From NCBI RefSeq assembly GCF_900292035.1, contig NZ_OMPO01000003.1, positions 310,001-374,000 on the forward strand: a stretch of 64,000 bases of DNA. The letters run 5' to 3'. This stretch comes from Blastococcus sp. Marseille-P5729 (GTDB taxonomy: Bacteria; Actinomycetota; Actinomycetes; Mycobacteriales; Antricoccaceae). Made by a program: the position numbers and the translations under genes. Positions within the stretch are counted from its first letter, which is position 1. Each line of letters starts with the position of its first letter. The notes under the pieces are model-generated. The model saw nothing but the letters and a program-made list of their open reading frames with translations, was not told the DNA's origin and did not search any database. Below are positions 33,077 to 35,380 of this stretch, piece by piece.

Positions 33077-33748
33077 TCAGTACTTGCCGGTCTTCTTCAG
33101 CGGGTGCTTGGCGTACTCGGCACTCACCTGCTGAGCCGCCGCGGCCCACCCTGCCGGCTTGGGGTGGTAGGTCTCGGGGATCACCCAGGTCTCGCCGACG
33201 TTCCACAACCAGTCGTTCGGGTTGGGCAGCAGGTTGTTCTGGTTGATCTCGTGGCCGGCGTACGCCTCGTCCACGGTGCTGATGTAGTACGTCGACTTCT
33301 TGCCGGAGCTCGCGTTCACGGCGTCCACCGCCTCCTGCTGGACTTGGGCCCCCAGGCTCATCAGCTTCGCGAGATCCGCCTTCACGTCGTACCAGCCCTG
33401 CGTGGACAGCAGGCCGTACGTCGTCGCGCGGGTGAGGTTCGGGTAGCCGATGAGCATGAACTGGGCGTCCGGTCGCATCTTCGAGCGGATGACGGTCATG
33501 CCGGCGACGAGCTGCTCCTTCATCGCGGGGATGTCGGCGATCGCTCCCTGGAGTGCGTTGCGGCAGGGGTCCCCGAGCCGCAGCACGAAGCACTGGACGA
33601 CGATGTCGGTGAAACCGACGTCGTTGCCGCCCATGGTCATCAGGACGATGTCGGCACTCTGGTCGACCGCGTCGGCCTGCGCCGGCTGCCCGGTCCCCGG
33701 GTTCGGATTCAGCAGGTCGGCGGTGGTGGCGCCGCTACAGGCGGCGTT
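33077..33748 (-). pseudogene. SGNH/GDSL hydrolase, C-terminal part severed by IS110
   Basis: Reads INAACSGATTADLL, then VLMTMGGNDVGF (block III GxND) and ends with ETYHPKPAGWAA (catalytic His block) and KKTGKY. It has no start, signal peptide or GDS block of its own. Joining codon AAC (33746-33748) directly to GTC (35098-35100) across the element gives YVNAACSG, the expected family motif, in one continuous frame. The intact gene would encode a secreted esterase/lipase of about 305 residues. Confidence 0.9.
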
Positions 33749-33762
33749 GATGCTCCTATAGT

Positions 33763-33768
33763 TGTCAA
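33763..33768 (-). promoter_or_regulatory. Right-end TTGACA box, circle-junction -35
   Basis: A perfect TTGACA lies at the right end on the minus strand, sharing TGA with the transposase stop codon. In the integrated element it has no partner in the flanking gene. If the ends are joined through the TC core, a 17-bp spacer leads to CAGTCT (35089-35094) in the left end, which keeps the key A and T of a -10. Transcription would then start near 35082 and read into the bridge-RNA region. IS110 elements are known to build promoters at the circle junction. Confidence 0.6.
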
Positions 33769-34835
33769 CTGCGGATCTCGCCGGTGTGGGGGTCCGTTTT
33801 GACCAGGTGGTAGACCTCTCGGATTACGTAGCGTTTCAAGCATCGGATAATGTCGCGTTTGGACTTGCCCTCGGCGGTGCGGCGGGCAACGTAGGCGATC
33901 GTTGGTTCGTGGAATCTCATCCTAACGATTACGGTGCGGTAGATCGCGGCATTGAGCTGTCGGTGCCCGCCACGGTTGATGCGATGTTTCCCGCAGGTCA
34001 TCCCTGACCCTGCCGGAATGGGACTGATGCCGGCAAGTTTCGCAAACGCTGCTTCACTTTTGATGCGCTCGGGGTTGTCGCCGACGACGATGAGGATCTC
34101 CGCGGCGGTATCAACGCCGATGCCGAAGCGATCCAGCAGATGCGGTGCCCGCTGGGCCACGAGGTCCTTGATCATGGCCTCTAGCTCCGTGATCTCGTCA
34201 TTGAGTGCGATCCAGCGTTTCGCGATCGAACGCAGTACGTGGCGGTTGGCATCCTCCGGGGTATTCAGCCCGCGTGGACGCAGGAGAGCAAAGTGGCGAG
34301 CGATCATCTTCTGGGTCTTCCCGGCTGTTTCACGGCGCAGCTCTTCTGAGGCGTGGACGAGCATGGCTTTGAGCGTGACCATCGCCCCGGTCCTGTCCTT
34401 GACCGCTGTATCGTGAGCGACCTTCAGCTGCCGGATCATCTCTACCGCACCGTCGGCGCTCTTGGGGACTGCGGTGGCGAATCCCGCCAGTACGGCCCGG
34501 GCGGCGTTCTCAGCATCCAGGGGGTCTGACTTGCCGTTCAGGCGCCGTAGCCGGCGATCCGGCCGGGCGACCTCGATGACTTTGTGGTCATGCCGCCTCA
34601 GGAATGAGGTGAGTGCAGCCCCATAGGAGCCAGTTCCCTCGATGCCGAAGGCCATGATCTTCCCGAACCCACTGGCCCAGTCCAGCAGCTGCTTATAGCC
34701 CGCAGCATCAGTAGCGATCGTGAGCGTGGCCAGGATCCCGCCGATAGAATCCATCACAGCAGCGACGTGGATGTGCTTGTGGGTGTCGACCCCGATGACG
34801 ACGTGCCCGGATCGGGCGGCCTCTATGGTGGCCAT
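33765..34835 (-). CDS. IS110-family transposase/recombinase
   Basis: 356 residues, intact. The N-terminal DEDD RuvC-like domain has GVDTHKHIHV (D16), FGIEGTGSYGAAL and KSDPLDAENAARA. The middle is a coiled coil. The C-terminal Transposase_20 domain has RFGIGVDTAAEILIVVGDNP and GISPIPAGSGMTCGKHRINRGGHRQLN, with the Ser region needed for strand exchange. AGGAGG lies about 12 nt before the ATG. No frameshift or stop, so the protein is probably functional. It uses a structured RNA to choose DNA targets (established for IS621 and relatives). Confidence 0.95.
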   Translation of the reverse strand: MATIEAARSGHVVIGVDTHKHIHVAAVMDSIGGILATLTIATDAAGYKQLLDWASGFGKIMAFGIEGTGSYGAALTSFLRRHDHKVIEVARPDRRLRRLNGKSDPLDAENAARAVLAGFATAVPKSADGAVEMIRQLKVAHDTAVKDRTGAMVTLKAMLVHASEELRRETAGKTQKMIARHFALLRPRGLNTPEDANRHVLRSIAKRWIALNDEITELEAMIKDLVAQRAPHLLDRFGIGVDTAAEILIVVGDNPERIKSEAAFAKLAGISPIPAGSGMTCGKHRINRGGHRQLNAAIYRTVIVRMRFHEPTIAYVARRTAEGKSKRDIIRCLKRYVIREVYHLVKTDPHTGEIRS

Positions 34836-34884
34836 AGCTTCTGGTCCTCCTGCCGATTAGCGTGGGTATCACGCTGTCGCCGGC

Positions 34885-35084
34885 GGGCGGACAGGACTGT
34901 CATGGGGACGCTTTGACCAGGCTGCTCCAGGCTCCTATTAGGTCACGCCCGATCCGGCGGCAGCGCTTGCTGCGCGCCCGGCCGGAGGCTCGACAGATCA
35001 ACGCTGAGGCACCCTGCGGGCCAATCGTAAGCATGGGTCAGAGCACTCCGGCCGGGACTACCCGATTCTTGCGGAACCCGGTAG
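34885..35084 (-). ncRNA. Candidate IS110 bridge RNA
   Basis: The 5' non-coding end can fold into the bridge-RNA layout, read on the minus strand. A 5' hairpin pairs CTACC (35080-35084) with GGTAG (35058-35062). The target loop is closed by a perfect 11-bp stem, CCCGGCCGGAG (35046-35056) with CTCCGGCCGGG (34977-34987), extended by GCTC/GAGC and GAC/GTC. The donor loop is closed by GGGCG-GAC (34942-34950) with GTC-CGCCC (34885-34892). Target-loop guide GCGTTGA (34998-35004) is complementary to target TCAACGC; the opposite strand of the loop has TACG (35026-35029), matching the left target. Donor-loop guide ATAGGAGC (34931-34938) equals the right end, and TGACAG (34897-34902) complements the left end CTGTCA. 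Ends are approximate. Confidence 0.75.
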
Positions 35085-35097
35085 AAACAGACTGACA

Positions 35098-35343
35098 GAC
35101 GTACGAGCCGCCGATCGAGGTGGCGAACTGCTGCCCATAGTTTCCGGGGCTGCGGTAGCAGTCGGGCGCCACCGGTTCGTAGTGCGCCTTGCCGTCCGCG
35201 GCTCGCGCGCCGTTGCCCGAGGAGTACGAGTCGCCGAGCTGGACCACCTTGGCGGGCGCGGGCGCTGCGGTAGCTGGAGTTGCGAGGGCGACGGCGGTGG
35301 CCGCGACAGCGCCCAGGATCGTGGTCATCAACTTCGTGCGCAT
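35098..35343 (-). pseudogene. SGNH/GDSL hydrolase, N-terminal part severed by IS110
   Basis: Starts at ATG 35343 (GGAG 6 nt upstream; ATG 35355 is an alternative). A Sec signal peptide (MRTKLMTTILGAVAATAVAL, cleavage after ATPATA) is followed by block I VVQLGDSYSSGNGA with the nucleophile Ser, and DCYRSPGNYGQQ. The reading runs through TAC GTC into the element, adding some 19 foreign residues ending VVPAGVL before a stop. This fragment lacks the GxND and His blocks and cannot be active. Confidence 0.9.
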
Positions 35344-35380
35344 CGGCGTCTCCATGGCTTCGGGGGCGAGCTGGGGACAG

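What the first reader, a model, noticed from the sequence alone, without database searches (positions are those of the whole stretch)
34885..35084. IS110 bridge RNA whose guides match this element's target and ends
The 5' non-coding end of the IS110 element can form a 5' hairpin and two closed loops. The first loop (perfect 11-bp stem, 35046-35056 with 34977-34987, extendable) contains GCGTTGA, complementary to target TCAACGC including the TC core. Its other strand has TACG matching the left flank. The second loop (stem 34942-34950 with 34885-34892) contains ATAGGAGC, identical to the element's right end next to the core, and TGACAG, complementary to its left end including one core base. This is the target-loop/donor-loop logic of IS621 bridge RNAs. 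By simple arithmetic a given 7-mer has about 1.5% and an 8-mer about 0.4% chance of occurring in 250 nt. The left target guide is the weak point (4 contiguous matches).
Basis: partly seen in the sequence, partly recalled or inferred. Interest (0 to 1): 0.9.

Follow-up and report, generated by a model that had tools for sequence, protein, structure and literature searches.

The report
Bridge RNA of an IS110 element
This is the built-in guide RNA of a jumping gene of the IS110 family: it reads the insertion site and the element's own ends, and in this lineage it almost always steers the element into the active-site codons of another kind of jumping gene (IS3 family), the copy in this window being an exception.

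Summary
A 1,349-bp IS110-group element (35097-33749, minus strand) carries a 262-nt left end. About 221 nt of it (35097-34877) fold into a 5' hairpin, a target-binding loop and a donor-binding loop. Covariation across 22 close and 35 wider relatives supports these stems. The guides track each element's own insertion site and own ends. In 23-26 representative elements, own pairings beat other elements' sequences in 20,000/20,000 permutations for the left target, left donor and right donor guides, and for the right target guide when TC is included. It is a canonical bridge RNA (seekRNA) system, a new member of a known kind. The guide is tuned to a different site: 31 of 34 relatives at 55% identity or more sit in the D-N-A-x-x-E catalytic motif of IS3/rve transposases. 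So do two 99% identical copies in the same genome, with identical RNA. The window copy is a less well-matched insertion that cut a GDSL/SGNH hydrolase gene. Targeting IS3 catalytic codons has a published precedent (ISEc21, second D rather than the E region). RNA expression and activity were not testable.

The parts
33749..35097 (-). Whole IS110-group element, 1,349 bp: left end TGTCAG... at 35097, right end ...GGAGCATC at 33749
   Evidence: Boundaries from two ~99% identical copies at another site and from in-frame empty-site reconstruction
33765..34835 (-). Transposase/recombinase gene, 356 aa; motifs D16/D17 region (VDTHK from residue 16), E66, D104, D107 and Ser277
   Evidence: Pfam DEDD_Tnp_IS110 1.4e-21 and Transposase_20 3.3e-16; PDB hits IS621 3.3e-10 and ISCro4 2e-8, Ser277 aligned with the serine of the IS621 YESG stretch; motif positions
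34877..35097 (-). Bridge RNA region: 5' hairpin, target-binding loop, donor-binding loop
   Evidence: Covariance model built from relatives: 260.6 bits here; next best in the window 8.7 bits; found only at the three copies in the genome. This copy is itself a row of the model
35062..35081 (-). 5' stem-loop
   Evidence: 4 of 7 pairs with compensatory changes, 93.5% of cells paired
35046..35056 (-). 5' arm of outer TBL stem (pairs with 34977-34987); inner extension about 35044-35037 with 34994-34988
   Evidence: 7 of 18 pairs with changes on both sides; 14 of 17 in the wider set
35024..35032 (-). Left target guide (LTG) GCUUACGAU
   Evidence: Own-target match across representatives, 0/20,000 permutations; per-element list
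35008..35022 (-). Inner stem-loop of the TBL between LTG and RTG
   Evidence: 96% of cells paired; GC/AU exchange at one pair
34998..35004 (-). Right target guide (RTG) GCGUUGA, complementary to TCAACGC
   Evidence: RTG with TC: 0/20,000 permutations; 6 nt without TC: 19/20,000
34977..34987 (-). 3' arm of TBL stem
34942..34950 (-). 5' arm of DBL stem (with 34892-34885)
   Evidence: 3 of 8 pairs with changes on both sides, 88.6% of cells paired
34931..34938 (-). Left donor guide (LDG) AUAGGAGC, same as the element's right end 33759-33752
   Evidence: 0/20,000 permutations; covaries (ATAGGGGC, ACAGGAGC variants)
34906..34928 (-). Inner stem-loop of the DBL (GGAGC ... GCGUCC)
   Evidence: 3 of 3 pairs with compensatory changes in the wider set
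34897..34902 (-). Right donor guide (RDG) UGACAG, complementary to C+TGTCA of the left end
   Evidence: Covaries in classes: TGTCA/UGACA, TGTGA/UCACA, AGTGA/UCACU, GGTGA/UCACC; 0/20,000 permutations
34885..34892 (-). 3' arm of DBL stem
35098..35103 (-). Left half of this copy's target, TACGTC
   Evidence: TACG matches the LTG, then one mismatch and one G.U
33744..33748 (-). Right half of this copy's target, AACGC
33763..33768 (-). TTGACA, possible -35 box facing the left end in the circular form
   Evidence: TTGA[CT] present in 41 of 44 compared right ends; function inferred

Best explanation
The non-coding left end (35097-34836) encodes a bridge RNA (seekRNA) that binds the element's own IS110 DEDD/serine recombinase. 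The element excises as a circle; the right end then abuts the left end (GGAGCATC|TGTCAG), which may create a promoter from the TTGACA of the right end. The first loop pairs with a target through GCUUACGAU (bottom strand, left) and GCGUUGA (top strand, right). The second loop pairs with the circle junction through AUAGGAGC and UGACAG. Strand exchange joins them with no net duplication. The lineage's guides fit the codons just upstream of the catalytic Glu of IS3-family transposases (D-x-[YF]-D|N-A). The window copy is a less well-matched insertion into a GDSL/SGNH hydrolase gene. Shown by comparison: element boundaries, structure, guide-target and guide-donor covariation, target preference. Inferred: transcription, RNA-protein binding, circle, promoter, chemistry.
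For: Transposase domains and closest solved relatives IS621/ISCro4. Structure covariation exceeds all 500 shuffles and all slid controls in two alignments. Permutation tests: LTG 198 vs 166.6+/-3.4, RTG+TC 156 vs 140.0+/-3.1, LDG 178 vs 170.4+/-1.3, RDG 148 vs 132.5+/-2.5, each 0/20,000; RTG alone 19/20,000. Multi-copy relatives with different guides keep their own target: TGCGCTGAC in three copies, CGGCTGAC in four, T[TA]TCCAC opposite guide TTGTCCAC in four, TAACG[GC]ATC in two. 31 of 34 relatives in IS3/rve motifs (rve domains for five tested). In-frame empty site in the window gene against an intact homologue.
Against: No RNA-seq, so expression and RNA ends are unknown. The single-sequence MFE does not give the full DBL. 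At the window site the left guide has one mismatch and one wobble in the six positions next to the junction, and TACGnCAACGC is not rare: 11 other sites in the genome against 16 for the reversed control pattern. The first core base differs between target (A) and element (T) in most IS3 insertions, unlike the shared CT core of IS621.
Confidence: 0.95

Rival explanations
1. The left end is only a leader/attenuator hairpin region of the transposase mRNA, and the guide matches are coincidence or end repeats.
For: It lies directly upstream of the gene, is G+C rich and folds stably; single guide matches have chance values of 0.3-2.4% each.
Against: The internal loop sequences covary with external flanking DNA that differs between elements, which a leader would not do.
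Confidence: 0.03
2. The flank matches arise because the boundaries are misplaced and part of the matching sequence belongs to the element.
For: In some multi-copy relatives the last bases of the left flank are constant across copies.
Against: Removing the element restores open rve reading frames across the junction in 31 of 34 relatives, and restores the window's hydrolase frame, which aligns without a gap to an intact homologue. Flank bases next to the junction vary between copies (T[TA]TCCAC, GA[CT]).
Confidence: 0.02

Closest known systems
IS621 bridge RNA system (IS110 group; PMC11208160, PMC11208158)
   Same: RNA in the left end, 5' stem-loop, target loop then donor loop, LTG/RTG and LDG/RDG logic, same recombinase family (PDB 8wt6, E 3e-10)
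   Different: Different target (IS3/rve motif, not REP); the first of the two bases before the junction is not shared between target and donor in most insertions; distant protein similarity
ISEc21 (IS110 group; seekRNA paper PMC11187229)
   Same: Upstream non-coding region; targets catalytic codons of IS3-family transposases; inserts without target duplication; natural retargeting reported in a relative (ISMch6)
   Different: ISEc21 targets codons around the second D of DDE; this lineage targets D-x-[YF]-D-N-A, a few codons before the catalytic E; mostly actinobacterial lineage. ISEc21 sequence was not compared here
IS1111 group
   Same: Same recombinase superfamily and RNA-guided targeting
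   Different: IS1111 has its non-coding region and RNA downstream of the transposase; here it is upstream

Membership tests
IS110 family, IS110 group | DEDD RuvC-like domain plus Tnp domain with catalytic serine | tested here: met
   Both Pfam domains above cut-off; Ser277 aligns with the serine of the IS621 YESG stretch; VDTHK, IEGTGSY and KSDPLD motifs. Individual DEDD residues assigned by motif, not by structure
IS110 family, IS110 group | Long left end, short right end, ncRNA in the left end | tested here: met
   262 nt before the ATG and 16 nt after the stop codon
IS110 family, IS110 group | Target-binding loop complementary to, and covarying with, the insertion site | tested here: met
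   0/20,000 permutations for LTG and RTG+TC
IS110 family, IS110 group | Donor-binding loop complementary to, and covarying with, the element ends | tested here: met
   0/20,000 permutations for LDG and RDG
IS110 family, IS110 group | Conserved 5' stem-loop and two closed loops supported by covariation | tested here: met
IS110 family, IS110 group | Circular intermediate with a promoter formed at the right-end/left-end junction | tested here: inconclusive
   TTGA[CT] in 41 of 44 right ends at a suitable place; no clear -10 shown
IS110 family, IS110 group | RNA expressed and bound by the recombinase; RNA required for recombination | not testable with these tools
   needs small RNA-seq and assays
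IS621-like subset | Same CT core dinucleotide in target and donor | tested here: not met
   Target A[C/T] against element TC in most IS3 insertions; TC in both in the window copy. Not a defining feature of the whole family
IS1111 group | Non-coding region downstream of the transposase | tested here: not met
   16 nt between stop codon and right end

The most novel reading that the evidence does not exclude
A mostly actinobacterial IS110 lineage specialised in the codons next to the catalytic Glu of IS3/rve transposases. It keeps that protein-level target while its guides change to follow different codons (YDNA, WDNA, GDNA, NDNA), and guide U opposite third codon positions lets one RNA read synonymous C- or T-ending codons through G.U pairs.
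Probability: 0.55. Interest if true: 0.5.

Novelty: new member of a known kind. Interest (0 to 1): 0.35.

Why it matters
It adds a well-supported natural family of programmable bridge RNAs, with matched targets and donors from dozens of contigs, most of them actinobacterial. It shows an RNA-guided insertion sequence that tracks the most conserved coding part of another transposon family, including natural retargeting between codon variants and one clear looser-target insertion. Such sets are useful for choosing new recombinases and for measuring mismatch and wobble tolerance.

Tried and rejected
Rfam gathering scan gave no family here, only a tRNA elsewhere in the window. RNAalifold pairs LTG with RTG (columns 74-76/100-102) and bases of LDG with RDG in the close set; these were left out of the tested structure because the loops are expected to stay open for DNA pairing and the LTG-RTG pairs do not persist in the wider set. 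A genome-wide count of TACGnCAACGC showed that the window target is not exceptional by itself, so the case rests on relatives, not on this one site. Literature searches found ISEc21 as the only precedent for IS3-codon targeting among the papers held. A Kocuria IS110 paper did not define targets. In one search the six-base register is off for L051 and L111; their full matches are.

Full report
What was checked. The finding lies in the left end of an IS110-group element read on the minus strand. In dinucleotide shuffles of the 221-nt stretch, GCGTTGA occurs in 1.6%, ATAGGAGC in 0.3%, TGACAG in 2.4% and TACG in 22% of cases.

Boundaries. Two further copies, about 99% identical (seven differences, four of them in the left flank), lie in the same genome. 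Their RNA region is identical to the window copy, but they sit in an IS3-family integrase gene...GGCGACGCATACGAC|TGTCAG...GGAGCATC|AACGCGCTC... Comparing the sites fixes the element as 35097-33749 (1,349 bp) with no net target duplication. The bases left of the junction come from the target; the last two bases of the right end (TC) come from the element. In the window the flanks join in frame as ...GGSYV|NAACSGATT..., which aligns without a gap to an intact homologue in a related genome (L144). The 3' part matches GDSL lipase models only below Pfam's cut-offs. The window copy therefore interrupts a GDSL/SGNH hydrolase gene.

Protein. The 356-aa product has both domains of IS110 recombinases above Pfam's cut-offs. 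Its only solved relatives are IS621 and ISCro4, and Ser277 aligns with the serine in the YESG stretch of IS621.

Structure. In 22 close relatives, a 43-pair model (5' hairpin, TBL stem with inner hairpin, DBL stem with inner hairpin) has 93.3% of cells paired and 16 pairs with changes on both sides. No shuffle of 500 reaches it on any of five measures, and sliding the partners drops pairing to 35-54%. In 35 wider relatives, 23 pairs give 85.6% paired and 142 cells with changes on both sides, again above all 500 shuffles. Three of the eight DBL stem pairs and all three tested DBL inner-hairpin pairs covary. A covariance model finds only the three copies in this genome.

Guides follow targets and ends. 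For 26 representative elements, the nine bases of target left of the junction match their own left end better than other elements' targets do: 198 matches against 166.6 +/- 3.4 in permutations, 0 of 20,000. Right target with TC, left donor and right donor also give 0 of 20,000; the right target without TC gives 19 of 20,000. Relatives with several copies show it directly: guide UGCGCUGAC with three sites TGCGCTGAC, UCGGCUGAC with four sites ending CGGCTGAC, UUGUCCAC with TTGTCCAC or TTATCCAC, UAACGCAUC with TAACG[GC]ATC. The donor guides change with the ends in the same way (TGTCA/UGACA, TGTGA/UCACA, AGTGA/UCACU, GGTGA/UCACC). These representatives are related, so the permutations are not independent trials, but the guide changes recur in separate lineages.

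Target of this lineage. Among 34 relatives (window copy included) with at least 55% identity and both flanks, 31 restore an rve reading frame with the junction between D and N of the D-N-[A/S] motif, a few codons before the catalytic Glu. Of these, 26 have D-x-[YF]-D-N and five have variants. Five reconstructed frames were tested and all hit rve models, one of them below Pfam's cut-off. The guide of this element (GCUUACGAU) fits GCATACGAC better than the window's TCGTACGTC. In the six guide positions next to the junction, most departures at the last codon position are G.U pairs; a systematic test was not made.

Known or new. Bridge RNAs (IS621, PMC11208160) and seekRNAs (PMC11187229) describe this mechanism. 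ISEc21 already targets catalytic codons of IS3 transposases, around the second D. The present element is a new member of that kind, with a neighbouring target motif. The two bases next to the junction are not both shared between target and element as the CT core is in IS621; the window copy, which has TC on both sides, is the exception.

Limits. No transcript data, no activity data, no ISfinder comparison. Transcription, circle formation and the junction promoter (TTGA[CT] in 41 of 44 right ends) are inferred.

Noticed in passing
L126 (G153:C1:3901650-3904350) and L128 (G090:C1:2002450-2005150): Two distant IS110 relatives carry a partial duplicate of the left end (78 and 80 nt) that stops at or a few bases after the left target guide, followed at once by a complete left end. 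This looks like insertion into the element's own guide-coding DNA followed by recombination.
   Followed up: partly
33077-33748 and 35098-35355: GDSL/SGNH hydrolase gene split by the element; a 56% identical intact homologue exists in a related genome.
   Followed up: partly
G000 C2:847007, C1:734986, C3:423218: Three further IS110-family genes of other subgroups in the same genome.
   Followed up: no
L156 (G000:C1:1585607-1585623): An IS3-type frame in this genome with an unoccupied GDSFDNA target site.
   Followed up: no
L090 (Halomonas contig), L071 (Methylobacterium), L086 (Vicinamibacterales): Relatives outside the actinobacteria with the same RNA architecture; L090 has guide AAUGAU opposite AATGAC in an rve gene, suggesting spread between phyla.
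   Followed up: partly
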